In this document: in pieces, positions 6,170 to 29,272 of the stretch
How the letters are laid out: each line of letters begins with the position of its first letter
How positions within the stretch are numbered: position 1 is the stretch's first letter
NCBI RefSeq assembly: GCF_900143005.1
Contig: NZ_FRCS01000008.1
Location: 62,001-126,000 of the forward strand
Length of the DNA: 64,000 nt
Direction of reading: 5' to 3'
Source: Cryptosporangium aurantiacum
GTDB lineage: Bacteria > Actinomycetota > Actinomycetes > Mycobacteriales > Cryptosporangiaceae
Notes under the pieces: generated by a model
Database searches by the model: none
The model's input: the letters and a program-made list of their open reading frames with translations, nothing else
What the model was told of the DNA's origin: nothing
Program-made: the position numbers and the translations under genes

Positions 6170-6197
6170 CTCACGCGTGTGGGCGGTCGGCCGATGA
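6170..6197 (+). promoter_or_regulatory. Motility sigma-type promoter for flbD-motAB
   Basis: CTCA (6170-6173), 16 bases, then GCCGATGA (6190-6197), about 59 bases before the flbD start. The -10 box matches 7 of 8 bases of the sigma-28 consensus GCCGATAA. The same spacing recurs at six other motility promoters in this window. Confidence 0.65.
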
Positions 6198-6255
6198 CTC
6201 AGTTGACAGGACTCAGGGATGAGCCCGCCGAGACGAACTCCAGGGACGGACTGCC

Positions 6256-6537
6256 GTGATTATCGTGACGCGCCTGAACGGCCAGGAATTCGCCTTGAAC
6301 CCCGACTTGATCGAGCGTGCCGACAGCACGCCCGACACGGTGATCACGCTCGTCGACGGGACCAAGTACCTCGTCTCCGAGTCCCTGAGCGAGGTGGCAC
6401 GCCTGATCCGTGAATTTCGGGCTTCGGTCATTGCCGAAGCCCAGCGGGCCGTACCGCCCACCAACACCCCGACCCTGACCGCCGTGGATGACGCTGCGCC
6501 GCAGACCGTCGTCCCGCTGCACCGCCGGGAGCGCTGA
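6256..6537 (+). CDS. flbD: FlbD-family flagellar protein
   Basis: A 93-residue protein whose first ~65 residues match the short FlbD family found next to motA in many Gram-positives (MIIVTRLNGQEFALNPDLIE, then TLVDGTKYLVSESLSEVARL). Its exact role is not established; it is not the Caulobacter NtrC-type FlbD. The GTG at 6256 is preceded by a GGGACGGA ribosome site. The stop overlaps the motA start (TGATG), so the two are translationally coupled. The C-terminal 25 residues are a Pro/Thr-rich extension. Confidence 0.85.
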   Translation: MIIVTRLNGQEFALNPDLIERADSTPDTVITLVDGTKYLVSESLSEVARLIREFRASVIAEAQRAVPPTNTPTLTAVDDAAPQTVVPLHRRER

Positions 6538-7304
6538 TGGACCCCGCTAGCATTATCGGACTAGTTGTCGCCTTTGCCATCGTCTTCACCACGATCATCC
6601 TCGAGGGCGGTAGCGTCGGCTCGATCTTCTTGGTCGCGCCACTGCTGCTCGTATTCGGTGGTGCGATCGCCGCCGCGATGACCGGCAGCACGCTGCAGGA
6701 CACGATCGCGTTCTTCAAGAACTTCGTCGGTGGCCTGACGGCCAAGAAGGTGGACGCCGGTGCGTCCGTCGACACGATCGTCAAGCTGGCCGAGCGGGCC
6801 CGTAAGGAAGGCCTGCTCGCACTCGAGGACGCGATCAAGGACGTCAAGGACCCGTTCCTCAAGGACGGCCTGCAGCTCGCCGTCGACGGTACCGACCCGG
6901 AGGAGCTCCGGGAGATCCTCGAGGGGCAGATCGAGGCGAAGAAGAAGCGGGACAAGACCGCCGCGAAGTTCTTCGCCGACCTCGGTGCGTACGCACCCAC
7001 GATCGGCATCATCGGTACCACCACCGGTCTGATCCACGCGCTGGAGAACCTGGCGGAGCCCGAGAAGCTCGGTCACGTCATCGCGGCCGCGTTCGTCGCG
7101 ACCCTCTGGGGTCTGCTGTCGGCGAACCTGATGTGGCTGCCGATGGCCTCCCGGCTCAAGCGGTTCAGTGAGCTGGAGGTCGACCAGATGAACCTCTCGA
7201 TCGAGGGCATCATGGCGATCCAGGCCGGCGCCAACCCGCGTCTGGTCGCGCAGAAGCTGAAGTCGCTGCTTCCGAACCCGGCGCCCGCCAAGGCGGCTGC
7301 CTGA
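6537..7304 (+). CDS. motA: Flagellar stator protein MotA
   Basis: The 255-residue length and four membrane spans are as in MotA. Spans 1 and 2 are at about 5-50 and spans 3 and 4 at about 150-205 (APTIGIIGTTTGLIHALENL, then HVIAAAFVATLWGLLSANLM). The cytoplasmic loop contains the charged stretch (EELREILEGQIEAKKKRDK) that contacts FliG. With MotB it forms the ion channel that turns the rotor. It overlaps flbD by 3 bases, and motB follows after one base. Confidence 0.96.
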   Translation: MDPASIIGLVVAFAIVFTTIILEGGSVGSIFLVAPLLLVFGGAIAAAMTGSTLQDTIAFFKNFVGGLTAKKVDAGASVDTIVKLAERARKEGLLALEDAIKDVKDPFLKDGLQLAVDGTDPEELREILEGQIEAKKKRDKTAAKFFADLGAYAPTIGIIGTTTGLIHALENLAEPEKLGHVIAAAFVATLWGLLSANLMWLPMASRLKRFSELEVDQMNLSIEGIMAIQAGANPRLVAQKLKSLLPNPAPAKAAA

Positions 7305-7305
7305 C

Positions 7306-8331
7306 ATGTCCGGCGGCGGGGGCCACGGCAAACGGAAGAAGCACGAAGAGCACGAGGAGCACGAGAACCACGAAAGGTGGCTCGTCAGCTACTCGGACAT
7401 GATGACGCTCCTGATGGTGCTGTTCCTCGTGCTCTTCGCCATGAGCAACGTCGACCAGACGAAGGTCATCCTCCTCCAGGAGGGCTTCAACCAGGCGTTC
7501 GGCACCAACACCGTCTTGCAAGGCTCGAGCTCGGTGCTGCAGAGCAGTTCCTCTGACAGCGCCGGGCTCGACATGGCGGCGGGCTCCGGCCCGGCCGGCC
7601 AGCTGACCGAGGAAGAGAAGGCGCTGGTCAAGAAGGCGGTCGCGGCTGCGGATCTCGCCGCGGCGCAGACCCGGATGCTGGCCGCCGAAGCCGAGGCGGA
7701 AAACCTCACCGAGGCGCAGCAGAAGATCACCGCCGCACTGAAGCAGCAGGGCCTGGCCGGCGACGCCTCGTTCACGATCGACGAACGCGGCCTGGTCGTC
7801 ACGATCATCACCAACGCGGTGATCTTCACCGGTGACAGCGCGGTCCTCCGCCCGGTCGGTCAGAGGATCCTGCACGCGGTCGGCCCGACGCTCAAGGCGC
7901 TGCCGAACAGCATCGAGGTGGACGGCCACACCAACCAGTTGCCGGTACCGACGCGCAACTACCCGTCGGCCTGGGAGCTGTCGACCGCGCGGGCCAGCGC
8001 CGTCGTCCGGTACCTCACCGGCAACGAGGGCATCGCGGCGAACCGTCTACGCGCGGTCGGCTTCGCCGGCACCAAGCCGCTGATCAGCCCCAGCGACCCG
8101 CGTTCGGTGAGGCAGAACCGCCGGGTGGAGATCGTCGTCCTCTCCGACCTGCCCGACGACACCAGCTCGCTCCTCCCGGCCGCGGCGAAGTCCGTCTCGG
8201 CGTCCTCGACGGCCACGGCCACACCGACGCCGACCGCGAGCGAAACCGCGGAGCCTGCGGAGACGGAGGAGGGCGCTACCCCATCCGCCACGACCTCCGA
8301 TCACTCGACGGAAACCGATTCGCACGACTAA
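7306..8331 (+). CDS. motB: Flagellar stator protein MotB
   Basis: The 341-residue protein has a charged His/Glu-rich cytoplasmic start, one membrane span (about 32-46) beginning with SYSDMMTLLMVLFLVLFAM, and a C-terminal OmpA-like peptidoglycan-binding domain (about 165-290: VDGHTNQLPV, SAWELSTARASAVVRYL, NRRVEIVVL). Asp31 in SYSD is the expected ion-binding residue. A Ser/Thr/Ala/Glu-rich tail of ~50 residues is extra. It anchors the stator to the wall. It starts 1 base after the motA stop. Confidence 0.96.
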   Translation: MSGGGGHGKRKKHEEHEEHENHERWLVSYSDMMTLLMVLFLVLFAMSNVDQTKVILLQEGFNQAFGTNTVLQGSSSVLQSSSSDSAGLDMAAGSGPAGQLTEEEKALVKKAVAAADLAAAQTRMLAAEAEAENLTEAQQKITAALKQQGLAGDASFTIDERGLVVTIITNAVIFTGDSAVLRPVGQRILHAVGPTLKALPNSIEVDGHTNQLPVPTRNYPSAWELSTARASAVVRYLTGNEGIAANRLRAVGFAGTKPLISPSDPRSVRQNRRVEIVVLSDLPDDTSSLLPAAAKSVSASSTATATPTPTASETAEPAETEEGATPSATTSDHSTETDSHD

Positions 8332-8360
8332 AGTGCGAAAAATGATGATCGGTACGTTCG

Positions 8361-8816
8361 ATGGCAGATGAGGACAAGGACAAGGAGAAGAAGAAGGGCG
8401 GCAGCAAGAAGCTGCTGATCATCATCGTGGCTGCGGTGGTGGTCCTGATCGGCGGCGGCCTCGGTGCCTACTTCGCGTTCTTCTCCGGCTCGGGCGAAGA
8501 AGAGGCCCATCCCGAGCCCACGCCCAGCGCCGTCGTCGTCGCGGAGGCCATCACGGTCAACCTCGCCGACGGGCACTACCTGAAGATTGCGATCGGCCTG
8601 CAAACGACCACCGAAGCGCACGAGACGGTAGACACCAGCAAGGCGCTCGACCTGGTCATCTCGCAGTTCAGCAACCTCGAGGTGGCGGAGCTCTCGACCA
8701 ACAAACAGCGGGAAGCAGAGAAGGCCGAACTGACCGAGAAGGTCGTCGAGGCCTACACCCAGGAGGGGCACGAATACGTGATGGCGGTGTATTTCACCGA
8801 GTTCGTCATCCAGTGA
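8361..8816 (+). CDS. fliL: Flagellar basal body-associated protein FliL
   Basis: A 151-residue single-span protein: Lys-rich cytoplasmic start (about 1-15), membrane span (LLIIIVAAVVVLIGGGLGAY), then a periplasmic domain with the FliL pattern (ITVNLADGHYLKIAIGLQTT, then ending in VYFTEFVIQ). FliL surrounds the stator and supports torque. It lies 29 bases after motB and 76 bases before fliM. Confidence 0.93.
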   Translation: MADEDKDKEKKKGGSKKLLIIIVAAVVVLIGGGLGAYFAFFSGSGEEEAHPEPTPSAVVVAEAITVNLADGHYLKIAIGLQTTTEAHETVDTSKALDLVISQFSNLEVAELSTNKQREAEKAELTEKVVEAYTQEGHEYVMAVYFTEFVIQ

Positions 8817-8857
8817 CGGGCGTTATCGCCGTTCACAATTACATGAAACGCATTCTG

Positions 8858-8885
8858 CTCAGAATTGCGCTCAGCCCGACGATCG
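8858..8885 (+). promoter_or_regulatory. Motility sigma-type promoter for fliM
   Basis: CTCA (8858-8861), 16 bases, GACGATCG (8878-8885), ending 7 bases before the fliM GTG. The -10 differs from GCCGAT at one base. The transcript would be nearly or fully leaderless. It would give the switch and export genes an internal promoter separate from flbD-fliL. Confidence 0.5.
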
Positions 8886-8892
8886 GGCGGAC

Positions 8893-9849
8893 GTGACTTC
8901 GTCGTCCGCGCCCGCCGGCGCCCCCCGTAACGCCGGCCGGTTGTCACGGCGTTCGAAGGGCACCGGGCCCCAGCTGTACGACTTCCGTCGGCCGACGAAG
9001 CTCTCCCGGGAGCACGCGCGCACCCTGCAGATGACGTACGAGACGTTCGCGCGGCAGTACACCACGTTGCTGACCTCGAGCCTCCGGGCGATCTCCCAGG
9101 TGACCCTGCTCTCGATCGAACAGCTGAGCTACGACGAGTACATCGCGCAGATCGGCAACCCGACGCTGCTCACGATGGTGACGCTCGACCCGCTGCCCGG
9201 CATCACACTGTTCGAGGTCCCGGTGGAGATGGCGCTCGCGTGCCTCGACCACCTGCTCGGCGGACCCGGCGGCGCGCAGCCGCAGCGCCAGCTGTCGGAG
9301 ATCGAGACCGTGCTGTTCCGCGGCTTGCTCGAGCGCATCCTCGGCGAGTTCCGGTACTCGTTCGACACGGTCAAGACGATCGACCCGAAAGCGGGCGCGA
9401 TCGAGTACAACCCGCAGTTCGCCCAGGCCGCGGCGCCGTCGGACCCGATGGTGGTCGTCTCGCTGGAGATGAAGGTCGGCGGCCAGGAATGCGTCGCCAC
9501 GATGGCGCTGCCGTTCGCCGCGGTGATGCTGGCGCTGCAGAAGGTCGACGAGGCGCTCGCGTTGACGCCGGCCGAGCGGCAGGCCAGGGACGCCGCGCTG
9601 CGTAACCTCACCGCCGGCCTGCTCGGCGCGAAGCTGCCGGTCGTCGTCCGCTTCGGCGCCACGCAGATGTACCCCGAACAGATCGTCGCGCTGGAACCGG
9701 GAGACGTGGTCACCCTCAACCACCCGGTCAACCGGCCGCTGACGGTCAGCACGGCCGGCATCACTCTGGCTCACGCCGTCCCCGGTAACCACGGCGCGCG
9801 GCTGGCCTGCCTGGTCGTCGACTCCCCGAGAGAGGACGCCAGGCGTTGA
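8893..9849 (+). CDS. fliM: Flagellar motor switch protein FliM
   Basis: The 318-residue protein has the FliM core (YDFRRPTKLSREHARTLQMT, FARQYTTLLTSSLRAISQV, FEVPVEMALACLDHLLGGPG) and a C-terminal SpoA domain (LPVVVRFGATQMYPEQIVAL, GDVVTLNHPVNRPLTV). It forms the C-ring with FliG and FliN and binds phospho-CheY to change rotation. The usual N-terminal CheY-binding helix (LSQxEIDxLL) is not apparent; residues 1-30 are Ser/Ala/Arg-rich. The GTG at 8893 has a GGGCGGA ribosome site. Its stop overlaps the fliN TTG. Confidence 0.95.
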   Translation: MTSSSAPAGAPRNAGRLSRRSKGTGPQLYDFRRPTKLSREHARTLQMTYETFARQYTTLLTSSLRAISQVTLLSIEQLSYDEYIAQIGNPTLLTMVTLDPLPGITLFEVPVEMALACLDHLLGGPGGAQPQRQLSEIETVLFRGLLERILGEFRYSFDTVKTIDPKAGAIEYNPQFAQAAAPSDPMVVVSLEMKVGGQECVATMALPFAAVMLALQKVDEALALTPAERQARDAALRNLTAGLLGAKLPVVVRFGATQMYPEQIVALEPGDVVTLNHPVNRPLTVSTAGITLAHAVPGNHGARLACLVVDSPREDARR

Positions 9850-10607
9850 CCGCTCCCACTGAGGCCGCAGCGAGCGTGCTCGCACAGGTCGGCGCCGCAG
9901 CCACCGCGGCGCTGCCGCTGCTGCCCGCGGTCGATCCGCTCACCGCCGGCGAGCCCCAGGTCGCGCCCGACACCGGTGGGCTGGTCGGGCAGGGCGTGCT
10001 CGCCAGCTTCTCCGGTGCGGCGCAGGGACAGCTGCTGGTCGCGGTCAGCCAGGACCTGGTGGACGCGCTGGCCCAGAGCCCGATGGGCGCGCTGGACCTC
10101 ACCCAGGCCCTCCAGCCGGTCGCCGAGGCGGCGGCGGCCACGCTCGGCGCGGTCGTCGTCGAGCAGGGCATTCCGGTTCCGGACCTGGAGGCGGGACTCA
10201 CCGCGCTCGCCGACTCCGGTGACGCCGCATTCGTACTGCTCAACGACGACACCGGCGTCCGTGCGCTGGTCGGCCTGCTGATCACGGCGGTGACCAGCAC
10301 GGCGGCGCCCGGCGGGCCGGGTGGGTCCGGTGCTCCGCTGCGGCACGGCTTGGACCTGCTGCACGGCGTCGAGATGGACGTCACCGCGGAGCTCGGGCAG
10401 ACCCGGATGACGGTTCGCGACCTGCTGTCGCTCATCCCCGGGTCGGTGGTGGAGCTCGACCGGCTCGCCGGGAGCCCGGCCGATCTGCTGGTGAACGGAC
10501 GAATGATCGGCCGCGGCGAGGTGGTCGTGATCGACGAGAACTTCGGCATCCGGGTCACCGAGATCATCACGCCGGACAGCGATCGCCCCCAGGGAGGAGG
10601 ACCATGA
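9846..10607 (+). CDS. fliN: Flagellar motor switch protein FliN, long FliY-like form
   Basis: At 253 residues this is about twice the size of enteric FliN. The C-terminal ~80 residues are the SpoA/FliN domain (LLHGVEMDVTAELGQTRMTV, LLSLIPGSVVELDRLAGSP, VNGRMIGRGEVVVIDENFGI). The N-terminal ~150 residues (VGQGVLASFSGAAQGQLLVA, LQPVAEAAAATLGAV) resemble the CheC-like half of FliY but lack the clear phosphatase signature E-x2-N. It completes the C-ring. The TTG start overlaps the fliM stop. The following fliO ATG overlaps its stop. Confidence 0.9.
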   Translation: MTAPTEAAASVLAQVGAAATAALPLLPAVDPLTAGEPQVAPDTGGLVGQGVLASFSGAAQGQLLVAVSQDLVDALAQSPMGALDLTQALQPVAEAAAATLGAVVVEQGIPVPDLEAGLTALADSGDAAFVLLNDDTGVRALVGLLITAVTSTAAPGGPGGSGAPLRHGLDLLHGVEMDVTAELGQTRMTVRDLLSLIPGSVVELDRLAGSPADLLVNGRMIGRGEVVVIDENFGIRVTEIITPDSDRPQGGGP

Positions 10608-11104
10608 TCGAGGTCACGCTACGGGCGATCTTCTCGCTCGCGGTCGTCCTGTTCCTGATGTGGGGGCTGGCTCGCCTGGTGCGGCGCCCGCTCGGTGCCC
10701 GCGGTGCGGGCGCGCTCGCGGTGCTGTCCCGGCAGCCGCTGAGCCGCACCGCGTCGGTGGCCGTCGTCAAGGTGGACGATCGAGCGCTGGTCCTCGGCGT
10801 CACCGACGGACAGGTGACATACCTGACCGAGGCGCCGCTCGCCGCGTTCGAACGGGTTCCGTTCGCCGATGTCCTGGCCGACGCTCAGGGCGACGACGTG
10901 CTGGATTCGTCCGGGCGTTCGTCCGGGGCGGTTTCGGGGGCCGCGCCGGGCGCGAGGTCGGCGCCGGAGGCGCGGTCGGCGTCGCGGGCGCGGCACGCGG
11001 CCCACGAGGCCGACCGGGGGCCGCTCGCCGGCTCGATGCTCTCCCCCGCGACCTGGTACCAGGCGGTCGAGTTCCTGCGCGATCGGTCGAGCCGCCCACG
11101 ATGA
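10604..11104 (+). CDS. fliO: Flagellar export protein FliO
   Basis: A 166-residue protein with one N-terminal membrane span (LRAIFSLAVVLFLMWGLARL), then a small beta-rich cytoplasmic domain (LSRTASVAVVKVDDRALVLG, VTYLTEAPL) and an Ala/Arg-rich tail. FliO is a scaffold for assembly of the FliP ring of the export gate. The family is weakly conserved, but its position directly before fliP and the GGAGGAGG ribosome site support the call. It overlaps fliN and fliP by 4 bases each. Confidence 0.88.
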   Translation: MIEVTLRAIFSLAVVLFLMWGLARLVRRPLGARGAGALAVLSRQPLSRTASVAVVKVDDRALVLGVTDGQVTYLTEAPLAAFERVPFADVLADAQGDDVLDSSGRSSGAVSGAAPGARSAPEARSASRARHAAHEADRGPLAGSMLSPATWYQAVEFLRDRSSRPR

Positions 11105-12006
11105 CGCACCGGGCGGGGATGGTGCTCCTCGGCCTCGCCACCGCCCTAGGACTCTGGGGCGGCCCGTCCCTCCTGTCCGGAGTAGCGGCCGCGGCACCGT
11201 TGCCCGCCGCGTACACCGCCGCGCCTTTCGCGCCGTTCGCCGAGCCGGCCGCTCCTGTTGCCGGGCCCGCCGCGCCGCGGGTGGAGCCAGGCGCGCCGCG
11301 GGTGGAGCCAGCCGCGCCTACGCCGCCGGTTCCGCCGGGCGGGCAGGTCACGGTCAACGTCAACAACGGGCCGAACGGCAAGCCGAGCACCGCGATCACG
11401 CTCCTGATCGCACTGACCGTGCTCTCGATCGCGCCGTCGGTGCTGCTGCTCTGCACGTCGTTCACGAAGGTCTACGTCGTACTGAGCATCGTCCGGAACG
11501 CGCTCGGCCTGCAGACCGTCCCACCGAACCAGGTGATCGCCGGGCTGGCGCTCTTCCTCAGCATGTTCATCATGACGCCGGTGTTCAGCCAGGTGAACGA
11601 GCAAGGCGTCCAGCCCTACCTGAAGGGCACCAAGACCCAGGCGCAAGCGTTCGACGACGGCGTCAAGCCGATGCGGGAATTCATGCTCAAGCACACCCGC
11701 AAGGACGAGATCGCGCTGCTCAACCGCGTCGCCGACAAACCGCGTCCGAAGAACAGGGACGACGTCTCGCTGCCGGTGCTGATCCCCGCGTTCGTCCTGT
11801 CCGAACTGCGAGCCGCGTTCATCATCGGCTTTGTCATCTTCCTGCCGTTCATCGTCGTCGACATGGTCGTGTCGGCGTCGCTGATGTCGCTGGGCATGAT
11901 GATGCTGCCGCCGGTGATGGTGTCGCTGCCGTTCAAACTCCTGCTCTTCGTCATGTCCAACGGCTGGACCCTCGTGGTGACCGCTCTGGTCGCCAGCTAT
12001 CGCTAG
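11101..12006 (+). CDS. fliP: Flagellar export gate protein FliP
   Basis: The 301-residue protein has a cleavable-looking signal peptide (about 1-37), a Pro/Ala-rich spacer (about 40-80) and then the FliP core: LLIALTVLSIAPSVLLLCTS, FTKVYVVLSIVRNALG, PPNQVIAGLALFLSMFIM, and the C-terminal spans (FIIGFVIFLPFIVVDMVVSA, GMMMLPPVMVSLPFKLLLFV). FliP pentamers build the export pore with FliQ and FliR. ATG 11101 overlaps the fliO stop; a longer upstream open frame is a shadow of fliO. Confidence 0.97.
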   Translation: MTHRAGMVLLGLATALGLWGGPSLLSGVAAAAPLPAAYTAAPFAPFAEPAAPVAGPAAPRVEPGAPRVEPAAPTPPVPPGGQVTVNVNNGPNGKPSTAITLLIALTVLSIAPSVLLLCTSFTKVYVVLSIVRNALGLQTVPPNQVIAGLALFLSMFIMTPVFSQVNEQGVQPYLKGTKTQAQAFDDGVKPMREFMLKHTRKDEIALLNRVADKPRPKNRDDVSLPVLIPAFVLSELRAAFIIGFVIFLPFIVVDMVVSASLMSLGMMMLPPVMVSLPFKLLLFVMSNGWTLVVTALVASYR

Positions 12007-12014
12007 GAGGCGTC

Positions 12015-12290
12015 ATGACGGATGCCCAGATCATCGAGATCGGGCTCTTCACGATGACGATCATCGCGAAGCTCAGCGCGCCGATCCTGCTCACGACGCT
12101 CGCGGTCGGCTTCCTGATCTCGCTGTTCCAGTCGGTGACCCAGATCCAGGAGCAGACGCTCTCGTTCGTCCCGAAGGCGATCGCCGCCGGGGGTGCGCTG
12201 CTGCTCACCGGGAACTGGATGCTGCACGAGCTGGTCTCGTACACCACTCAGCTCTATGCCCGGATTCCTACGCTGCTGTCCGGATCCTGA
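12015..12290 (+). CDS. fliQ: Flagellar export gate protein FliQ
   Basis: A 91-residue, two-span protein with the FliQ pattern (LLTTLAVGFLISLFQSVTQI, QEQTLSFVPKAIAAGGALLL). It packs around the FliP-FliR core of the export gate. The ATG at 12015 has a perfect ribosome site (TAGGAGG, 12005-12010) that includes the fliP stop. Confidence 0.96.
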   Translation: MTDAQIIEIGLFTMTIIAKLSAPILLTTLAVGFLISLFQSVTQIQEQTLSFVPKAIAAGGALLLTGNWMLHELVSYTTQLYARIPTLLSGS

Positions 12291-12313
12291 GTCCGCGACC
12301 GGGGGCGGGCCGG

Positions 12314-13078: not shown

Positions 13079-13096
13079 GCGAGGAGGTGATCCCCG

Positions 13097-14194: not shown

Positions 14195-14199
14195 GGGCG

Positions 14200-15536: not shown

Positions 15537-15564
15537 CTCAGGCAGGAGAGTCCGGCGCCGATGG
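15537..15564 (+). promoter_or_regulatory. Motility sigma-type promoter for flhA
   Basis: CTCA (15537-15540), 16 bases, GCCGATGG (15557-15564), 42 bases before the flhA ATG. It is the best example of the CTCA-N16-GCCGAT element here. The -35 lies within a small inverted repeat (ACTCTC / GAGAGT). Confidence 0.7.
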
Positions 15565-20637: not shown

Positions 20638-20653
20638 GCTTGCCTTTCCGACG

Positions 20654-21151: not shown

Positions 21152-21227
21152 CGTCCACCCCTTGCGTCGCAGCCGGCGGCACCGCGCCGCGGCCCGTGCC
21201 CGACCCTGGCCTCACCCTCCGAAGGGC

Positions 21228-22063: not shown

Positions 22064-22455
22064 GCGTGCGCCCCGTCCGGGATCAACCCGAGCATGACCA
22101 GCTTGTCCACGATCGCATCCGGCGTGAACGGCTTGATCACGTACTCGTGGGCGCCGGCCGCGAGCGCGCGGACGATCTGTCCGTGCTCGCTCTCAGTCGT
22201 GACCATCATCAGCGTCATCCCGCGGAACTTCTTGTCCGCGCGAACGGCGGTCACGAACTCGAGACCGTTCATCTCGGGCATGTTCCAGTCGATCAGCGCA
22301 AGCTCGGGCACCGTATCCAGTTCGGCGAGGCGATCCATCGCCTCGCGCCCGTTACCGGCCTCGACCACGTCGAAGTTCAGACCGGAGACGATGCGTCTGA
22401 GGATCAGTCGCATCGCTCGGGAGTCGTCGATCACCATGGCGAGCACTCGCCTCAC
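22060..22455 (-). CDS. cheY: CheY-type single-domain response regulator
   Basis: A 131-residue receiver domain: acidic pair (VIDDSR), Asp56 (LIDWNMPEMNG), Thr-Thr in MVTTESE and Lys in VIKPFTPD. Closely similar in layout to the other CheY two genes downstream but clearly divergent, so not a recent copy. The GTG at 22455 overlaps the cheR stop (GTGA). Confidence 0.92.
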   Translation of the reverse strand: MRRVLAMVIDDSRAMRLILRRIVSGLNFDVVEAGNGREAMDRLAELDTVPELALIDWNMPEMNGLEFVTAVRADKKFRGMTLMMVTTESEHGQIVRALAAGAHEYVIKPFTPDAIVDKLVMLGLIPDGAHA

Positions 22456-23303
22456 CCCTTCCCCGTGACGCCGACCGGCGCCGAAGTACCGGTCCGCGGC
22501 CGATAGGCCGACGTCCGTCCGGTGACGACGCGCTCAAAGCCGTCGTCGATTCCCATCGTGGTCTCGGCAGCGCCGAGGAAGAGCCACCCATCGGGCTTCA
22601 GCAGATTGCGGATGCGCTTGAGCACGCCCCGCTTCGTCTCGACGTCGAAGTAGATGAGCACGTTCCGCAGGAACACCACGTCGAATGCGGGCATCGGCGG
22701 GAACGGCGCCGCCAGATTGAGCCGCTTGAAGCTGACCGCCTTTTTGATCGGGGCGGCCACCTCCCACTCCGGACCGACCCGGGTGAAGTGCTTGACCAGC
22801 AACGGCGCCGGCAGACCTCGGTTCACCTCGAGCTGGCTGTACCGGCCGGTCTCGGCTCTGGCCAGCATCTCGGTGGAGATGTCGGTTCCGAGGATCTCGT
22901 ACGTCCAGCCCGGCGGCAGGTTCTCCTTGAGCAGGATCGCCAGCGTGTACGGCTCCTGGCCGCTGGACGACGCGGCCGACCAGACCCGCATGCTGCGCGC
23001 CGTCCCCCTGGACTTCACCAGCTGCGGGATGACCAGGTCGGTCATCGCGGTGAACGGCTCCCGATCCCGGAACCAGGACGTCTCGTTCGTCGTCAGCGCA
23101 TCGACGATGCTGTCCCGGTCGCTACGACCGGCCGGGCCCTGTGCCCGGAGCAGGAACTCGGTGACCGAGGCCAGGCCCGCTTTGCGGGCCAGCGGCAGCA
23201 GCCGGGCTTCGACCAGGTATTCCTTCCCCGGTTCCAGCACGATCGACGCCTCCCGGCGTACCAGGCTGCTGACGAATTGGAACTCGTGCGCCGAGAGGGT
23301 CAT
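22452..23303 (-). CDS. cheR: Chemotaxis methyltransferase CheR
   Basis: The 283-residue protein has the CheR N-terminal helical domain (FQFVSSLVRREASIVLEPGK) and SAM-binding domain: NETSWFRDREPF, VWSAASSSGQEPYTLAILL, EILGTDISTEMLARAETGRY, and DVVFLRNVLIYFD. It methylates receptor glutamates in sensory adaptation; no receptor is encoded here. Its start overlaps the cheB stop and its stop overlaps cheY. Confidence 0.96.
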   Translation of the reverse strand: MTLSAHEFQFVSSLVRREASIVLEPGKEYLVEARLLPLARKAGLASVTEFLLRAQGPAGRSDRDSIVDALTTNETSWFRDREPFTAMTDLVIPQLVKSRGTARSMRVWSAASSSGQEPYTLAILLKENLPPGWTYEILGTDISTEMLARAETGRYSQLEVNRGLPAPLLVKHFTRVGPEWEVAAPIKKAVSFKRLNLAAPFPPMPAFDVVFLRNVLIYFDVETKRGVLKRIRNLLKPDGWLFLGAAETTMGIDDGFERVVTGRTSAYRPRTGTSAPVGVTGKG

Positions 23304-24481
23304 CTGACCACCGCCAACCGGTTAGCTCGGCCGTGGCCGACGCGAGCGAGCAGAGTGTCGGAAATCGAGCCGAGCGGCACTATGGCGTCTGCGAGCCCGG
23401 CCGCGGCGACGGCGCCGGGCATTCCCCAGACCACGGATGTCTCCTCGTCCTGGACCACTATTTCGCTACCGACCCTTGCGAGAACTTCACAACCCTTTTT
23501 ACCGTCTTGTCCCATTCCGGTCAGCACGACGGTCAGGGCATGCGCGCCGTAGACCGTCGCCACCGACCGGAACAGCGGGTCGACCGCGGGGCGGCACGAG
23601 TTCTCCGGCGGCCCCTCGTGCAGCTTGGTGACGACCGAGGTCCCCCGCCGGATGACCTCGAGGTGCTTGTCGCCCGGCGCGATGTACACCGTGCCGGCCG
23701 TCAAGGGAGTGTCCGCCGTCGCTTCGACCACTTTTACTGCACTTGCCCGATCTAGGCGATCGGCGAACATTTTGGTGAAAATCGGCGGCATGTGCTGAAC
23801 GACGACCACCGGCACCGGCAGATCCTTCGGGAAGCCCTGGACGACCTTGGCCAGCGCGTCCGGGCCGCCGGTGGAGCACCCGACCGCGATGACGTCGATC
23901 CGGGTCCCGGGCGTCTTGGGGGCGGCCTTTCCCGGCGGCCGCGCACCGGCCGGCGGCGGAGCCTGCGGCCGCCCGAGCGGTGCACCCGCGCGGGCGGGTG
24001 GCCCGCCGGGCGCCGTCGCCGGCGCGCCGGGGCGGCCGGGCAACGCGCCGGGGCGCGGCGGAACCGCGCTCGGCCGCTGCCGCGGCGCGAGCGCGTAGAT
24101 CCGCGGGATGAGCTGTTCACGGACGCTCTTGATCGACTCCCGCACGCTGCCGACGTTCGCCGGCTTCGTGACGTAGTCGCTGGCGCCGGCCGCGAGCGCT
24201 TCCAGCGTGGCGGACGCCCCGGAGGCCGTCAGCGTGCTGAACATGATCACCGGAAGACGCTTGTGCTTGGGGCGCAGCTCTCGCAGGGTGCCCAGGCCGT
24301 CGAGCACCGGCATCTCGATGTCCAGCGTCACGACGTCGGGCTTCAGCTCGTCGATCTTGGCGAGAGCGAGCCGTCCGTTGGACGCGGTACCAACGACCTG
24401 AATGCCCGGGTCGTCGGTGAGTGCGTCAACGATCAGGCGTCGGACGACGACCGAGTCGTCGACCACCAGAACTGAGATCAC
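23300..24481 (-). CDS. cheB: Chemotaxis methylesterase CheB
   Basis: A 393-residue CheB: receiver domain (1-120) with Asp54 in VTLDIEMPVLDG, a ~60-residue Pro/Ala/Gly linker (about 140-200), then the methylesterase domain with Ser in VGCSTGGPDAL, His in VVQHMPP and Asp in LTGMGQDGKKG. It removes methyl groups from receptors when phosphorylated by CheA. GTG 24481 (ISVLVVDDS) was chosen over a longer upstream frame because it has a GGGAAGG-like ribosome site and matches family N-termini. It is first in the cheB-cheR-cheY-cheX-cheY operon. Confidence 0.96.
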   Translation of the reverse strand: MISVLVVDDSVVVRRLIVDALTDDPGIQVVGTASNGRLALAKIDELKPDVVTLDIEMPVLDGLGTLRELRPKHKRLPVIMFSTLTASGASATLEALAAGASDYVTKPANVGSVRESIKSVREQLIPRIYALAPRQRPSAVPPRPGALPGRPGAPATAPGGPPARAGAPLGRPQAPPPAGARPPGKAAPKTPGTRIDVIAVGCSTGGPDALAKVVQGFPKDLPVPVVVVQHMPPIFTKMFADRLDRASAVKVVEATADTPLTAGTVYIAPGDKHLEVIRRGTSVVTKLHEGPPENSCRPAVDPLFRSVATVYGAHALTVVLTGMGQDGKKGCEVLARVGSEIVVQDEETSVVWGMPGAVAAAGLADAIVPLGSISDTLLARVGHGRANRLAVVR

Positions 24482-24571
24482 ACGCGCCGCCTTCCCGTGC
24501 CGAGGCCCCGCACGCGCCGGCAACCGCAGCCGCAGCCGGGCGGGATGCACCTCGGGGCCGTCACGGCGTCC

Positions 24572-24599
24572 CTATCGGTCGCGCGGTGACCAGGCTGAG
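24572..24599 (-). promoter_or_regulatory. Motility sigma-type promoter for the cheB operon
   Basis: On the minus strand, CTCA (24599-24596), 16 bases, ACCGATAG (24579-24572), 90 bases before the cheB start. Five of six core -10 bases match GCCGAT. Confidence 0.55.
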
Positions 24600-24650
24600 G
24601 AATTGGTGTGACCCGGACCACGACCTGACGGACCCGGGCCCCCCGAAACG

Positions 24651-24680
24651 CGTCGGCCCGCGCCGAAGCGCGGGCCGACG
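24651..24680. terminator. Hairpin terminator
   Basis: A perfect 12-bp stem (CGTCGGCCCGCG / CGCGGGCCGACG) with a 6-base loop sits 16 bases after the stop of the 349-residue gene (minus strand). It insulates that gene from the cheB operon. Confidence 0.8.
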
Positions 24681-24696
24681 GGGAAAGCGCGTGCGA

Positions 24697-25746
24697 CTAC
24701 GAACCCAGGGCGGACGGCCCGAGGGTGGACAGCACCGGCCCGAGCAGGCGGTGGGCGGTCTCTGCGTCCACCAGGTCGCGGGCGGCCAGCGCCTGGACGG
24801 CGCCGCTCAGCAGGTTCCACACTCCGGCTGCCCGCTCGGTCACCGGAATCCCGCTGGTCTCCACTGCCTGGACGAGTAAGAACTGCCCGGCTGCCGCCTC
24901 GCGGACCCGGTCGGCCAGGTGGACCGCCCAGGACGCGGAGTGGATCGCCGGTGCCCAGCTCGCCGACTCGCGGCGCGCCGCCTCCGCAGCCTTGTAGAGC
25001 CGCGCGCCGTCCTGCTGGCTCAGGCTCGCAACCCGGTCGATCAGCGTCCGCATCGCGGACCCGGTCGGGCCGAGGCCCACCTCCCGCTCGGGCAGACGCC
25101 GGCTCGCGGCCACCCACGGGGCAGCCAGCCGCCGCCTGCTCTGGTCGTCGAGTTCCTGCCGGAGGTACCCGGCCACGATCGCGTCGCAAATCACCGCGGT
25201 CGCCCGGGAGGCGACCTCCGACTGCACCTTCGGCGGCCGGGGAGCCGGCTCGCCGGTGCGCTGCACCGGCGGGAACTGCGGGGCCTGGTCCGGCTCGGCC
25301 TCGCCTGCCGCGCTCCACGTCCAGTCCAGGACGTCATAGCGAACGCACTGCAGCAAGCCGTCGACGGTGCCCAGCGGCGCCCGCTGAAGGAGCCCCAGCG
25401 CGGCGCTGGCCCGCTTCTCGACCGGCGTCGCGGGGTCGGTTGCGCGGCTCAGCCCGGCGACATCACGGACCGTAGGCTGCACGGTCGTCGCGATCTCCAC
25501 CGCGGCCCAGAGATCGGCGCGCTGCCCGTCGTCGGCGCGATGCTCGGCGAGCACCTCCAGGTCGTCCGGACCCAGCGACAGAGCGCGGGTCAGGACGTCG
25601 GAGACACCGGCCCCACCCTCGATCCGGGTGAGGTCGAAACCGAGGACTGGGGCGCTGACCAGGCTGTACACGCAAGCCAGTCTGACACCCGTTCGCCGGT
25701 CCGCCAAGGCTTCGCCCGGGACCACCGGCCGAATTCGACCGTCCAC
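24697..25746 (-). CDS. Unknown helical protein between chemotaxis operons
   Basis: The 349-residue soluble protein is Ala/Leu/Arg-rich and mainly helical, without signal peptide, membrane span or known catalytic motif. It has a middle Pro-rich stretch (about 155-175). I do not recognise the family. No motility-type promoter is seen upstream (25747-25885), and a strong terminator follows it. The ATG at 25746 has no obvious ribosome site; a start further in is possible. Confidence 0.65.
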   Translation of the reverse strand: MDGRIRPVVPGEALADRRTGVRLACVYSLVSAPVLGFDLTRIEGGAGVSDVLTRALSLGPDDLEVLAEHRADDGQRADLWAAVEIATTVQPTVRDVAGLSRATDPATPVEKRASAALGLLQRAPLGTVDGLLQCVRYDVLDWTWSAAGEAEPDQAPQFPPVQRTGEPAPRPPKVQSEVASRATAVICDAIVAGYLRQELDDQSRRRLAAPWVAASRRLPEREVGLGPTGSAMRTLIDRVASLSQQDGARLYKAAEAARRESASWAPAIHSASWAVHLADRVREAAAGQFLLVQAVETSGIPVTERAAGVWNLLSGAVQALAARDLVDAETAHRLLGPVLSTLGPSALGS

Positions 25747-25885
25747 AGTGGCGCGCGACGCACGGATCCGAACGGCGGTGGCTACGCACCGTCGTCGGAT
25801 GTGAACTGCGGCATACCGTCACCCAGCGTGGTGTGCTCCCGGAGCGGTCACACGCATGGTTACTACCGGAATGCGTTCAGTGAGA

Positions 25886-26257
25886 TCAGGCGGCCTGCCC
25901 GCGTCCGCCGAGGTCGGTGATGACCTGCTCGGCGTCCTGCGCGAACCGGGGCGCCACGACCGCGAAGGCCCGCAGCGGATCGCTGCCGGGAACGTCCGGA
26001 CGCTCCAGCGGGCCGAGCGCACCGATCAGGTCCACGGTCCCGGAGGGCGGCGTCTCGTCGAGCGCACCGACGCCGGCCCTGGCCGAGCCGGTCAGCAACG
26101 CGAGCAACTCGGCCTGCTGGCTCACCGCGAGCCGCAGCGCCTGTCCGGGGTCCGCCGGGGTGTCCTGGCCGGCTGCCTGGGGAACCTGAGTGGCCGGGTG
26201 GTCCGGCTGCGCTCCGGACGGGCTCTCGACCTCGAGCTTCGACTGCGATCTGGGCAC
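25886..26257 (-). CDS. Unknown 123-residue protein under a motility-type promoter
   Basis: The protein has a disordered Pro/Ser/Gln-rich first half (SQSKLEVESPSGAQPD, TPADPGQALRLAVSQQAELL) and a second half with DLIGALGPLERPDVPGSDPL and AFAVVAPRFAQDAEQVITDL. No known family is recognised. GTG 26257 has an excellent ribosome site (GGGAGGAG), better than the ATG at 26371, which lies inside a terminator hairpin. A CTCA-N16-GGCGATAG promoter ends 50 bases upstream, so it is a likely new motility-regulon member. Confidence 0.75.
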   Translation of the reverse strand: MPRSQSKLEVESPSGAQPDHPATQVPQAAGQDTPADPGQALRLAVSQQAELLALLTGSARAGVGALDETPPSGTVDLIGALGPLERPDVPGSDPLRAFAVVAPRFAQDAEQVITDLGGRGQAA

Positions 26258-26307
26258 GGCGAACTCCTCCCGAACTCCGGCGGACGTCACTCCGACCGCC
26301 AGCGTTC

Positions 26308-26335
26308 CTATCGCCGGGCGTCCGGCGAATCTGAG
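26308..26335 (-). promoter_or_regulatory. Motility sigma-type promoter for the 123-residue gene
   Basis: On the minus strand, CTCA (26335-26332), 16 bases, GGCGATAG (26315-26308). One mismatch to GCCGAT. It lies just downstream of the cheW terminator. Confidence 0.55.
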
Positions 26336-26352
26336 AACTCCGGACACGCGAA

Positions 26353-26383
26353 CACGCCGAACCGGCTGCACCGGTTCGGCGTG
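26353..26383. terminator. Terminator after cheW
   Basis: A perfect 13-bp stem (CACGCCGAACCGG / CCGGTTCGGCGTG) with a CTGCA loop begins 10 bases after the cheW stop on the minus strand. Confidence 0.85.
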
Positions 26384-26393
26384 CTCACAGGAC

Positions 26394-26846
26394 CTATCTG
26401 GCCGCGACCTTGGCCGCGTTCGAGGCCGAGTCCACGGCGCGCTTGGCGTCCAGCGCCAGCATCAGCCTGCTGTCGAGCTTGAAGGCGCCGATGATCAGCT
26501 CGCGCACCGGGCCGGCCAGCGTGTCCGGCGGCGGCTCGAACGTGTCGTCCTGCAGCTCGACGACGTCGCCGATCTTGTCGACGAGCAGGCTGATCGGCTC
26601 GTCGTTCTCCGACACGATCACGTTCATCGACGGCTTGGACATGTCCCGGGGCTCCAGCCCCAGCCGCACCCGGAGGTCGACCGCGGCCATCACCTGGCCA
26701 CGCAGGTTGATCAGGCCACCGACCGACTTGTCCGCGAGCGGAACGCGGGTGTACTCGCTGAACCGGAGCACTTCGACGACCTTGGCGACGTCGACCCCGA
26801 ACAGCTGATCGGCGACCTCGAACGTCGTGTATTGACGGCTGGTCAT
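26394..26846 (-). CDS. cheW: Chemotaxis coupling protein CheW
   Basis: A 150-residue single CheW domain: QYTTFEVADQLFGVDVAKVV, EYTRVPLADKSVGGLINLRG, QVMAAVDLRVRLGL and ISLLVDKIGDVVEL. It links CheA to receptors. It lies 52 bases after cheA; the gap contains an 8-bp inverted repeat (GGCCTCCG / CGGAGGCC). A strong terminator follows. Confidence 0.96.
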   Translation of the reverse strand: MTSRQYTTFEVADQLFGVDVAKVVEVLRFSEYTRVPLADKSVGGLINLRGQVMAAVDLRVRLGLEPRDMSKPSMNVIVSENDEPISLLVDKIGDVVELQDDTFEPPPDTLAGPVRELIIGAFKLDSRLMLALDAKRAVDSASNAAKVAAR

Positions 26847-26898
26847 CGGAGGCCTCCGCAGTGAGGATCGGAGCCTCGGAGGCCGTAGGGAAGCACAG

Positions 26899-29217
26899 TC
26901 ATACGCCGCTCATCTCCTCGAGGCCACCGCTGTAGTTCTCCGCGTACTCGTCCATCGCGTCGAAGAAGTTGACGTCAGCGGCCAGGATCGCCTGCCGGAC
27001 GTCGAGCATCTCGGTGACACGCTGCTGGATGACGGCCGAGCCGGTGAGGCCGGAGTCGTCCAGATCGCTGTGAGTGGCCAGCGAGTCCTCGACGATGTCG
27101 ACGATCTTCTCGACGGCGAGCGCGACACTGCGTCCGCGCTCGCTGTACACGACCACCGGCACCGAGTCGCCATCCTCGGCCGGGTACGCGCCGAGCAAGT
27201 GGGCCAGCCGCACCAGCGGCAGGATCCGGCCGCGGTACTGCACGACCTCGCGACTGCCGACCCGCTCGATCTTGTCGACCGGGAACTCCTCCAGCCGGGT
27301 GACCATGTCCAGCGGCACCGCGACCCTGCGGTCGCCGACACCGGTGATGAGCAGCCGGTTGCCGCTGCCGACCCGGCCCTGCGCCTGCTGGGCCTCGGCA
27401 CCGATGCCGGACTTCTCGACGGCCTGGGCCGCCAGCAGCGAACGGCGGGCGAGCGACTGGACGTCGAGGATGAGCGCCACCTTTCCGTCGCCGAGGATCG
27501 TCGACCCCTGGTACACGCCGATGTCCTTGAGCAGCGCCGCGAGCGGCTTGACCACGATCTCCTCGGTGTTCAGGACGCGGTCGACGACCAGGCCGAACCG
27601 CCGTCCCTCCGCCTGGAGGACCGCGATGTAGACGTCCTTGTCGTTCGAGCCGACCGGCAGCCCGAGCGTCTCGTCGAGCCGGACCAGCGGCAGCAGCTTG
27701 CCCCGGAGCCGGTAGACCGGCGCACCCGAGACGTGCTCGATATTCTTGTCCGAGGAGCCGTCGACGAAGACCAGTTCGTCGACCGCGATCTGCGGGATTG
27801 CGTACTGCTCGGTGCTGCACTCGACGGTCAGCGCCTGGATGATCGCCAGCGTCAGCGGGATCGTCAGCCGCCAGGTCGTCCCCCGGCCGGGGGTCGAGTC
27901 GACGTCGACCGTGCCGCCGATCTTCTCGATGTTGGTCTTCACCACATCCATGCCGACGCCGCGGCCGGAGACGTTCGTGACCTTCTTCGCGGTCGAGAAG
28001 CCCGGCTGGAACAGCAGCTGGAGGATATCGGAGGTCTCCATCCGGGCCAGCTGGTCGCGGGTGATCACACCGCGGTCGAGCGCGGTGCTCGCCACCCGGT
28101 CCGGGTCGATGCCTGCGCCGTCGTCGGCCACCTCGACGACCACGTGGCCGCCCTCGTGGTACGCGCGCAGCGTCAGCGTGCCCTCGGGGTTCTTCCCGGC
28201 GGCGCGGCGGACGTCCGGCGGCTCGATGCCGTGGTCGACCGCGTTGCGGACGAGGTGGGTCAGCGGGTCCTTCACCGACTCCAAGAGGCTCCGGTCGAGC
28301 TCGGTCTCCCGGCCCTCCATCGCCAGCTTGATCTGCCGCCCGAGCTGGCTCGACAGGTCGCGGACGACTCGGGGCAGCTTCGACCAGATCTGGTCGATCG
28401 GCTGCATCCGGGTCTTCATCACGCTTTCCTGCAGCTCGGACGTGATGAGGTTGAGCCGCTGGGTGGTCCGGGTCAGCGCCGGGTCGGACATCTCGCTGAC
28501 GCCACGCACGAGCTGGTTGCGGGTGAGCACCAGCTCGCCGACCAGCCGCATCAGCGCGTCGAGCAGGTCGACGTCCACTCGGATCGAGCTCTCGGCGACG
28601 CTGCGGCGCTGCGGGGCGTTCCCCTCCTCGCCGGGCTCCGGGGCGCCCGGTGGGGGCGTCAGCCCGGCGCGCGGCGCGGGGACCGGTGCCTTGCCGACCG
28701 GCTCGGGCTCGGGCTCGGGTTCCAGCTCCGCCTCGACCGTGTCGTCGGCGACCGCCTCTGGCTCGGTCTCTGCGAGCGTCTCCTCGGCGGGCGGCGGTGC
28801 CGCCGGAGCGGCGGCCTTGGGCTTGCCGGACCCGTCCTCGATGCACGCGGTCACCGCTTCGATGGCGGGCTGGACGTCGATGTCGCCCTCGGCGCCGGAC
28901 TCCTCGATCGAGGTGAGCAGAGCGCGCACGCTGTCGACCATGCGGAGCAGCGCGTCGGCGCTCTCGACGTTCATCGACTGAGCGCCGTCCCGCAGCCGGG
29001 ACAGCAGGGACTCACCGGCGTGCGTCACCGTCTCCAGACGGTGGAACGCCAGGAAGCCGCTGGTGCCTTTGATCGTGTGGATCGTGCGGAAGATGCTCGA
29101 CAGCAGCTCACGGGAGTCGGGGTGCTGCTCCAGCGCGACCAGGTCCCGGTCGAGCTGATCGAGGTTCTCGTGGCTCTCGACCAGGAACTCTTGAACGATG
29201 TCGTCCAACTCGTCCAC
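26899..29217 (-). CDS. cheA: Chemotaxis histidine kinase CheA with two CheW-like domains
   Basis: A 772-residue CheA: Hpt domain (1-110) with His47 in RTIHTIKGTSGF, an acidic/Pro-rich stretch (about 130-205) instead of a clear P2 domain, dimerisation helices (about 210-290), HATPase (DPLTHLVRNAVDHGIEPPD, ADDGAGIDP, GRGVGMDVVKTNIEKIGG), then two CheW-like domains (about 460-600 and 620-750: LVRLDETLGL; NRLLITGVGDRRVAVPLDMV). Classical CheA has one. It phosphorylates CheY and CheB. GTG 29217 has a GAGGGAGA ribosome site and matches family N-termini (DELDDIVQEFLVESHENLD). Codes first in cheA-cheW. Confidence 0.95.
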   Translation of the reverse strand: MDELDDIVQEFLVESHENLDQLDRDLVALEQHPDSRELLSSIFRTIHTIKGTSGFLAFHRLETVTHAGESLLSRLRDGAQSMNVESADALLRMVDSVRALLTSIEESGAEGDIDVQPAIEAVTACIEDGSGKPKAAAPAAPPPAEETLAETEPEAVADDTVEAELEPEPEPEPVGKAPVPAPRAGLTPPPGAPEPGEEGNAPQRRSVAESSIRVDVDLLDALMRLVGELVLTRNQLVRGVSEMSDPALTRTTQRLNLITSELQESVMKTRMQPIDQIWSKLPRVVRDLSSQLGRQIKLAMEGRETELDRSLLESVKDPLTHLVRNAVDHGIEPPDVRRAAGKNPEGTLTLRAYHEGGHVVVEVADDGAGIDPDRVASTALDRGVITRDQLARMETSDILQLLFQPGFSTAKKVTNVSGRGVGMDVVKTNIEKIGGTVDVDSTPGRGTTWRLTIPLTLAIIQALTVECSTEQYAIPQIAVDELVFVDGSSDKNIEHVSGAPVYRLRGKLLPLVRLDETLGLPVGSNDKDVYIAVLQAEGRRFGLVVDRVLNTEEIVVKPLAALLKDIGVYQGSTILGDGKVALILDVQSLARRSLLAAQAVEKSGIGAEAQQAQGRVGSGNRLLITGVGDRRVAVPLDMVTRLEEFPVDKIERVGSREVVQYRGRILPLVRLAHLLGAYPAEDGDSVPVVVYSERGRSVALAVEKIVDIVEDSLATHSDLDDSGLTGSAVIQQRVTEMLDVRQAILAADVNFFDAMDEYAENYSGGLEEMSGV

Positions 29218-29244
29218 GTTTGTCTCCCTCTGTCGTCGCGGCTT

Positions 29245-29272
29245 CCATCGACGCGACAGGCGTTCACCTGAG
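29245..29272 (-). promoter_or_regulatory. Motility sigma-type promoter for cheA-cheW
   Basis: On the minus strand, CTCA (29272-29269), 16 bases, GTCGATGG (29252-29245), 27 bases before the cheA GTG. One mismatch to GCCGAT. Confidence 0.55.

What the first reader, a model, noticed from the sequence alone, without database searches (positions are those of the whole stretch)
6170..29272. A recurring CTCA-N16-nCGAT promoter element defines a motility regulon
Seven sites have a CTCA (one CTAC) box, a spacer of exactly 16 bases and a -10 box with invariant CGAT at positions 3-6: 6170-6197 (+, flbD), 8858-8885 (+, fliM), 15537-15564 (+, flhA), 15488-15461 (-, EAL-HDOD), 24599-24572 (-, cheB), 26335-26308 (-, 123-residue protein), 29272-29245 (-, cheA). 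The -10 boxes match the sigma-28 family GCCGATAA; the -35 differs from the enteric TAAA. As I recall, a CTCA-type -35 has been described for FliA-family sigma factors in Actinoplanes. All sit at operon starts of motility genes.
Basis: partly seen in the sequence, partly recalled or inferred. Interest (0 to 1): 0.85.

Follow-up and report, generated by a model that had tools for sequence, protein, structure and literature searches.

The report
CTCA-type flagellar sigma-factor promoters
A bacterium with swimming genes marks many of its flagellum, chemotaxis and receptor genes with one shared start signal whose first half differs from the textbook one, and its flagellar sigma factors differ from their textbook relatives in the part that should read it, which suggests a testable rewiring of gene control.

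Summary
All seven sites lie at the stated places: six CTCA and one CTAC, each 16 bases before nnCGAT. Spacing is exact: CTCAG before SCCGAT occurs 42 times in the 9.58 Mb genome at spacer 16, against 8 at spacer 15 and 12 at spacer 20. Beyond the window such sites precede flagellin, 9 of 21 chemoreceptor genes, two pilus-type ATPase genes and several sensory genes. The boxes recur at orthologous genes of related genera while spacers drift. The EAL-HDOD site is doubtful: its -35 is not conserved.

Best explanation: promoters of the FliA-family sigma factor encoded 11.5 kb before the window. A CTCA-type -35 is known from Actinoplanes (recalled: Jang et al. 2016, not held), so this is a new member, with CGAT instead of the recalled CGAA.

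The new part is a candidate cause. The helix that should read the -35 has Arg-(Ala/Ser/Thr)-acidic in 26 of 36 actinobacterial FliA, but His in 20 of 20 sampled WhiG-like paralogs of the same order and in 50 of 54 FliA from other phyla. No transcription start or FliA dependence was tested.

The parts
6170..6197 (+). CTCA-N16-GCCGATGA promoter of flbD (GTG start 6256)
   Evidence: boxes upstream of flbD in G002, G003, G004, G062, L001, L006, L013, L019 with spacer 16, and in L002, L004, L005, L014 with spacer 17; none found in G001, L003, L007; in G002 the site lies 35 instead of 86 nt before the start. Pfam FlbD
8858..8885 (+). CTCA-N16-GACGATCG promoter of fliM; its -10 region ends 7 nt before the GTG start at 8893, so the mRNA is probably leaderless
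   Evidence: found in G001-G004, G062, L002, L006, L013, with spacer 17 in L001 and as GTCA in L003; none in L004, L005, L007, L014, L019; Pfam FliM
15537..15564 (+). CTCA-N16-GCCGATGG promoter of flhA (ATG start 15607)
   Evidence: found in G001, G002, G003, G062, L003, L006, L013, as CGAA in G004, with spacer 17 in L001 and L019; none in L002, L004, L005, L007, L014
15461..15488 (-). CTAC-N16-GCCGATGA, possible weak promoter of the EAL-HDOD gene; doubtful member
   Evidence: GCCGAT kept in 4 of 4 genus members, -35 not kept; Pfam EAL and HDOD
24572..24599 (-). CTCA-N16-ACCGATAG promoter of cheB
   Evidence: found in G002, G003, G062, not in L002 or L013; Pfam CheB_methylest and Response_reg
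26308..26335 (-). CTCA-N16-GGCGATAG promoter of a 123-residue protein without Pfam match
   Evidence: found in G003; not found in G002, where the alignment begins only at residue 39; no Pfam family
29245..29272 (-). CTCA-N16-GTCGATGG promoter of cheA (GTG start 29217)
   Evidence: found in G003 and G062, as CGAA in G002, and before a gene only 33% identical in G004; not found in L002, where the alignment begins at residue 191; Pfam CheA domains

Best explanation
The elements are promoters read by the cell's FliA-family (sigma-28) factors. Region 2 of the sigma reads the GCCGAT -10 as in other flagellar sigma factors, while region 4.2 reads a changed -35, CTCA(G), held at exactly 16 bases. The holoenzyme starts transcription about 6-8 bases after CGAT, at fliM practically on the start codon. 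The regulon joins flagellum, chemotaxis, many chemoreceptors, pilus-type motors and sensory proteins. Shown: the motif, its exact spacing, its recurrence at orthologous genes and its gene context. Inferred: that FliA reads it, that region 4.2 carries the altered specificity, and the transcription starts.
For: Sites and spacing. Spacer test in the genome: CTCAG form 42 at spacer 16, 8 at spacer 15, 12 at spacer 20. Non-coding-like: 28 of 42 at spacer 16 (27 of 41 outside the window, plus the flhA site), against 4 of 12 at spacer 20 and 3 of 8 at spacer 15; random positions 9-11%. Identity G000 to G002 over five sites: -35 20 of 20, -10 27 of 30, spacer positions 5-16 27 of 60 (the G002 sites had been found with the pattern, so part of the box identity is by selection). 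Flagellin promoter found unasked at C8:52686; full boxes in 5 of 6 other genomes. 9 of 21 chemoreceptor genes have the site at spacer 16; at each of 22 other spacers 0-1 have it. FliA gene in the cluster; its best match among solved structures is FliA 6pmi, then a sigma that I recall to be WhiG, 6pfv. The textbook TAAA version is not enriched: 5 hits against 9 for the reversed pattern. Within family f15, flagellated G062 has 21 hits against 7 reversed, ten genomes without FlhA 76 against 59.
Against: No transcription start, RNA or mutant data exist here. Same-genus G003 has the sites but no FliA match at E <= 1e-30 (an assembly of about 150 contigs, 24 of 62 candidates scored). The flagellated family f16 shows no enrichment at spacer 16 (53 against 38 reversed), nor do seven other flagellated genomes (58 against 34); some families without FlhA are as high above the reversed control as flagellated f2 (173/49): f8 115/34, f5 36/10, f4 102/37. 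12 of 21 chemoreceptor genes lack an exact site of their own. fliA has no site upstream in G000 nor in 7 of 7 other fliA windows. 12 of 33 non-coding-like hits precede unrelated genes or no recognisable gene.
Confidence: 0.86

Rival explanations
1. The CTCA box is the site of a separate activator that sits over the -35, and the sigma itself reads only GCCGAT.
For: A fifth frequent base would fit a longer protein-binding word: G after CTCA in 12 of the 15 window and chemoreceptor sites, and in 24 of the 28 sites listed (13 of those picked by annotation).
Against: The spacing to the -10 is rigid at 16, with 0-1 hits at 22 other spacers upstream of chemoreceptor genes, and CTCA lies where a -35 must lie. 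In the 4-mer scan of the genus the next words are CTCA shifted by a base or two. Flagellar FliA in the order has a changed helix where the -35 should be read.
Confidence: 0.07
2. Another sigma factor (an ECF or SigB-type sigma) reads these promoters.
For: The genome has many other sigma-70-family genes (18 matches to the FliA_WhiG model at E <= 0.001). Some genomes without flagella also exceed the reversed-pattern control. G003 shows no FliA match.
Against: GCCGAT is the flagellar-sigma -10 (stated in PMC8325347, passages read). The two best matches to the model are the two flagellar-type FliA (185.9 and 136.2 bits); the others lie below 123 bits. The sites mark flagellar, chemotaxis and receptor genes.
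Confidence: 0.06
3. Chance words picked by eye in a GC-rich genome.
For: One d=16 hit of the window lies inside a coding ORF (44291); about 1% of random 230-nt windows hold the full motif and 12% hold 7 of 8 letters. The EAL-HDOD member fails conservation.
Against: Exact spacing, recurrence at orthologous genes in other genera, and enrichment upstream of chemoreceptors.
Confidence: 0.01

Closest known systems
FliA promoters of Actinoplanes missouriensis, CTCA(N15-17)GCCGAA (Jang et al. 2016, J Bacteriol; consensus recalled from its abstract, paper not held)
   Same: CTCA -35, spacer of about 16, GCCGA -10, flagellar genes; more than one FliA (three there, PMC13293333 passage; two here); pilus and chemoreceptor genes rise together with flagellar genes (PMC11960193, passage read)
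   Different: Sixth -10 base is T here, not A: CTCAG-N15-SCCGAT 42 hits against 5 reversed, the CGAA form 10 against 8. Spacer fixed at 16 in this genome
Canonical flagellar sigma-28 promoter, -35 TAAA, -10 GCCGATAA (enteric FliA; WhiG)
   Same: GCCGAT-like -10; sigma factor of the same family
   Different: -35 CTCA instead of TAAA; AA after GCCGAT not kept; helix has R-A-E where most of these have H-(S/T)-(Q/K)
WhiG-like paralogs of the same order
   Same: Same TESR(V/I)(S/C)Q core of the helix as most FliA
   Different: His-Thr-(Lys/Arg) in 20 of 20 sampled WhiG-like genes against Arg in 34 of 36 FliA

Membership tests
Canonical sigma-28 (FliA/WhiG) promoter | -35 TAAA | tested here: not met
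   CTCA in six of seven; genome-wide TAAAN{14,16}GCCGAW 5 hits against 9 for the reversed pattern
Canonical sigma-28 (FliA/WhiG) promoter | -10 GCCGATAA | tested here: inconclusive
   Among the 15 window and chemoreceptor sites the first base is G in 14 and the second C in 9 (CGAT by selection); AA after it not met in any of the seven
Canonical sigma-28 (FliA/WhiG) promoter | a FliA/WhiG-family sigma factor is encoded | tested here: met
   C8:49607-50461; 185.9 bits against TIGR02479, just under its cut-off of 189.6; best solved relative FliA 6pmi
Canonical sigma-28 (FliA/WhiG) promoter | transcription depends on that sigma | not testable with these tools
   needs mutant RNA data
Actinoplanes CTCA-type FliA promoter | CTCA -35 | tested here: met
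Actinoplanes CTCA-type FliA promoter | spacer 15-17 (recalled) | tested here: met
   16 in all seven sites; CTCAG form at spacer 16, 15 and 20: 42, 8, 12
Actinoplanes CTCA-type FliA promoter | -10 GCCGAA (recalled) | tested here: not met
   T, not A, at the sixth base in all seven sites; CGAA form 10 hits against 8 reversed
Actinoplanes CTCA-type FliA promoter | mapped transcription starts | not testable with these tools
   needs RACE or differential RNA-seq
FliA (flagellar) rather than WhiG sigma factor | gene lies in a flagellar cluster | tested here: met
   between flgN and the flagellin gene (Pfam), with csrA nearby

The most novel reading that the evidence does not exclude
Flagellar sigma factors of Actinobacteria left the textbook TAAA -35 through a two- to three-residue change in the recognition helix of region 4.2 (His-Ser/Thr-Gln/Lys to Arg-Ala/Ser-Glu), reading CTCA instead. 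This insulates the flagellar-chemotaxis-pilus regulon from the paralogous WhiG, which keeps the histidine and TAAA. Related clades then drifted again: spacer 17 with R-A-R in Geodermatophilaceae, Cys in a family without FlhA (f4).
Probability: 0.45. Interest if true: 0.72.

Novelty: new member of a known kind. Interest (0 to 1): 0.5.

Why it matters
How a sigma factor and dozens of promoters change their shared code together is an open question. Here are a defined -35 change (TAAA to CTCA), a rigid spacer, a regulon that can be counted, and a candidate set of three residues that separates flagellar FliA from its paralog WhiG within one bacterial order. A swap test in a laboratory strain could decide it. 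The promoter word may also help to list the motility and chemoreceptor regulon of unstudied relatives from sequence, though only where the spacer and gene context are checked too.

Tried and rejected
Rejected: the EAL-HDOD site as a full member (its -35 is not conserved); the GCCGATAA claim; autoregulation of fliA (no site in G000, nor in 7 of 7 other windows; an eighth row, G004, where only the C-terminus aligned, was dropped); the TAAA form; the CGAA form.

Led nowhere or weak: in the 4-mer scan CTCA was not among the listed words for L001+L019, the two Micromonosporaceae loci, Geodermatophilaceae (there GTCA at 17, 4 against 0.16, came up), Micrococcales, Acidimicrobiia+Patulibacter, Firmicutes or Beta/Gammaproteobacteria; the last two groups gave no TAAA signal either, so the scan has limited reach. 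The phylum-wide pattern count (296 genomes) is not informative: genomes without an FlhA match exceed the reversed control too (G153 12/1, G318 13/2, G385 11/1, G277 20/5), beside FlhA-positive G257 33/9, G351 17/8 and G371 19/4; I did not analyse it further. The FlhA search over that sample found 52 of 296. Genes behind the spacer-20 and spacer-15 control hits were not annotated, nor the TAAA and CGAA hits read. Actinoplanes papers that would give the published consensus are not held, nor is the sigma-28 structure paper, so which residues touch the -35 is recalled, not read. Structure prediction was not used: it would not show DNA contacts.
Full report
Setting. The window is C8:62001-126000 of a 9.58 Mb, 44-contig genome; the window has 71% GC. 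The window opens inside a flagellar cluster that starts before it with csrA, flgL, flgK, flgN, fliA, flagellin, fliD, fliS and basal-body genes (flgK and flgL by eye).

Observation. CTCA-Nd-nnCGAT occurs 7 times at d=16 in the window, against a mean of 1.25 and a maximum of 5 over 55 other spacers; one of the 7, at 44291, lies in a coding ORF. A scan that assumed only NCCGA[AT] and tried all 256 4-mers at six spacers put CTCA at 16 first in the genus (10 against 0.35 expected), in G004 (6 against 0.15) and in G062 (6 against 0.1), and second in Nocardioides/Aeromicrobium (3 against 0.08), behind TCAG at 15, which is the same word shifted. In seven other groups CTCA was not among the listed words: L001+L019, Micromonosporaceae, Geodermatophilaceae (GTCA at 17 instead, 4 against 0.16), Micrococcales, Acidimicrobiia+Patulibacter, Firmicutes, Beta/Gammaproteobacteria.

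Conservation. At orthologous genes the boxes recur while the spacer drifts. For five sites compared between G000 and G002, identity is 20 of 20 in the -35, 27 of 30 in the -10, 16 of 20 in spacer positions 1-4, 27 of 60 in positions 5-16, and 22 and 23 of 30 in the flanks. The G002 sites had been found with the pattern, so box identity is partly by selection; at fliM, flhA, cheB and cheA they sit at roughly like distances from the start, while at flbD the G002 site lies 35 instead of 86 nt before it. Of sixteen flbD genes examined, the window's own included, nine have CTCA-N16-nnCGA[AT], four the spacer-17 form (three Geodermatophilaceae and Pseudosporangium), and three none (G001, L003, L007). 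At fliM, CTCA starts 34-35 nt before the aligned start in G000-G004 and G062, so the transcript should begin at or near the start codon. Two promoters outside the window were found without being looked for: flagellin (CTCA-N16-AGCGAT at C8:52686; full boxes in five of six other genomes, not in G062) and flgN (CTCA-N16-GCCGAC, kept in G001, G002 and G062; GTCGAT in G016, GCCGTT in G082). The EAL-HDOD site keeps GCCGAT in four of four species but not its -35.

Genome-wide. CTCA-N16-SCCGAT has 89 hits against 20 for the reversed pattern; 87 lie outside the window, and all 87 were fetched and scored with a codon model trained on 15 window genes. Non-coding-like (score below 3) are 36 of 87, or 38 of 89 with the window sites flbD and flhA; the other 51 are coding-like. 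With G after CTCA it is 28 of 42, without it 10 of 47. Random positions give 9-11%, but the words themselves favour non-coding DNA: wrong-spacer controls give 4 of 12 at spacer 20 and 3 of 8 at spacer 15. The fair comparison is therefore the counts: CTCAG-SCCGAT 42 at spacer 16, 8 at 15, 12 at 20. The CGAA form has 10 against 8 reversed, TAAA forms 5 against 9.

Regulon. Behind the 33 non-coding-like hits of the 81 first fetched lie: 8 chemoreceptor genes (L133, L139, L150, L169, L177, L191, L198, L207; L177 and L207 by their sensor domains only, being cut by contig ends), 2 pilus-type ATPase genes whose sites are 1.75 kb apart (L159 with MshEN+T2SSE, L160 with T2SSE; PilB- and PilT-like by eye), 8 sensory or signalling genes (EAL L168; PAS/GAF L140, L155, L164, L175, L189; response regulator L203; 7TM kinase-type L154), 3 solute-binding genes (L136, L194, L212; L212 lies upstream of the chemoreceptor gene at C28:26960), 6 other genes (a protein kinase, a CAP protein, a short-chain dehydrogenase, fn3, acyl-CoA dehydrogenase, aminotransferase) and 6 with no Pfam match or no ORF. 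Some starts are far from the site (L194, L202), so those links are weak. The three non-coding-like hits added later (L286-L288) were not annotated. The converse test: of 21 genes with an MCP signal domain, 9 have CTCA-N16-nnCGAT within 110 nt upstream; at each of 22 other spacers it is 0 or 1. Twelve have none of their own.

Across genomes. In 101 relatives, 15 FlhA-positive genomes of f1, f2 and f15 hold 367 hits of the CTCAG pattern against 91 reversed; 11 flagellated f16 genomes 53 against 38; 7 other flagellated genomes 58 against 34; 68 genomes without FlhA 594 against 278. Excess per genome differs between the first and last groups (Mann-Whitney p about 3e-8), but genomes are related and the groups were chosen after seeing the counts, so the p-value is only descriptive. 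Three families have FlhA-negative members with ratios near that of flagellated f2 (173/49): f8 115/34, f5 36/10, f4 102/37. This control is thus imperfect; the spacer controls are better.

The reader of the site. The FliA at C8:49607-50461 has a paralog whose two pieces lie at contig ends C41 and C13; complete paralogs in G001 and G002 have the same helix, as does the C13 piece. G003 gave no FliA match at E <= 1e-30. In the helix that should meet the -35, the FliA set reads Arg-(Ala/Ser/Thr)-(Glu/Asp) in 26, Arg-Ala-Arg in 8 (all f16) and Cys in 2 (f4) of 36 sequences, six of them near-copies from the window's genus; 20 of 20 WhiG-like genes of the same order (20 taken of about 34 such places listed) read His-Thr-(Lys/Arg). 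Of 64 flhA loci L017-L080, 55 gave a FliA-like helix; leaving out the one Arthrobacter row (L033), 50 of 54 have His and none an acidic third residue. FliA 6pmi and the sigma of 6pfv also have His (organisms recalled as E. coli and Streptomyces WhiG). That these positions face the -35 rests on recalled sigma-70 structure knowledge. Caveats: the change could be inherited baggage of one clade; the two Arthrobacter FliA have R-S-E and R-A-E without clear CTCA enrichment in Micrococcales loci; the FliA set is weighted towards the window's order.

Literature. PMC8325347 (passages read) gives TAAA/GCCGATAA as the flagellar consensus and says WhiG-like flagellar sigma factors direct flagella and pili in Actinoplanes. 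PMC11960193 (passages) says 29 flagellar, 4 pilus and 9 chemoreceptor genes of A. missouriensis are among those at least 100-fold up at day 3. PMC8306008 (passages) says its flagellar genes are transcribed without hierarchy. PMC10746217 (word search) on actinobacterial flagella has no word beginning with 'promoter' in its main text. Searches for CTCA with FliA or Actinoplanes found no held paper giving this motif; listings for the helix question showed no title on it. The Actinoplanes consensus CTCA(N15-17)GCCGAA is recalled from the abstract of Jang et al. 2016; the paper was not seen.

Verdict. A real promoter class with a countable regulon, best explained as FliA-dependent. In kind already known from Actinoplanes (recalled); new in this lineage, with a T instead of the recalled A, a fixed spacer, and a testable three-residue candidate for the switch.

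Noticed in passing
G022:C1:4302371-4303156 and G034:C2:301833-302660 (L252, L250): Two genomes of family f4 without an FlhA match encode a FliA-like sigma 53-55% identical to the window's FliA, with Cys at the key helix position: a flagellar-type sigma apparently without flagella.
   Followed up: partly
G000:C41:3-440 (-) and G000:C13:228698-228934 (-): A second fliA paralog appears split over two contig ends of the assembly; complete copies exist in G001 and G002.
   Followed up: partly
L004, L005, L014 upstream of flbD: Three Geodermatophilaceae loci have CTCA with a spacer of 17 before GCCGAT, and FliA of that family (f16) reads R-A-R instead of R-A-E.
   Followed up: partly
window 8858-8893: The fliM promoter lies so close to the start codon, also in G001-G004 and G062, that its transcript should be leaderless.
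   Followed up: partly
window 25886-26257 (-): 123-residue protein without Pfam match, between cheW and a 349-residue gene also without Pfam match, with its own CTCA promoter; function unknown.
   Followed up: no
G000:C35:681-706 (-) (L287): A further CTCAG site before what looks by eye like another chemoreceptor start near a contig end; not counted among the 21.
   Followed up: no
G257 and G351 (f45), G371 (f61): FlhA-positive genomes outside the window's class with more CTCAG-N15-SCCGAT hits than the reversed control (33/9, 17/8, 19/4); some genomes without FlhA show this too.
   Followed up: no
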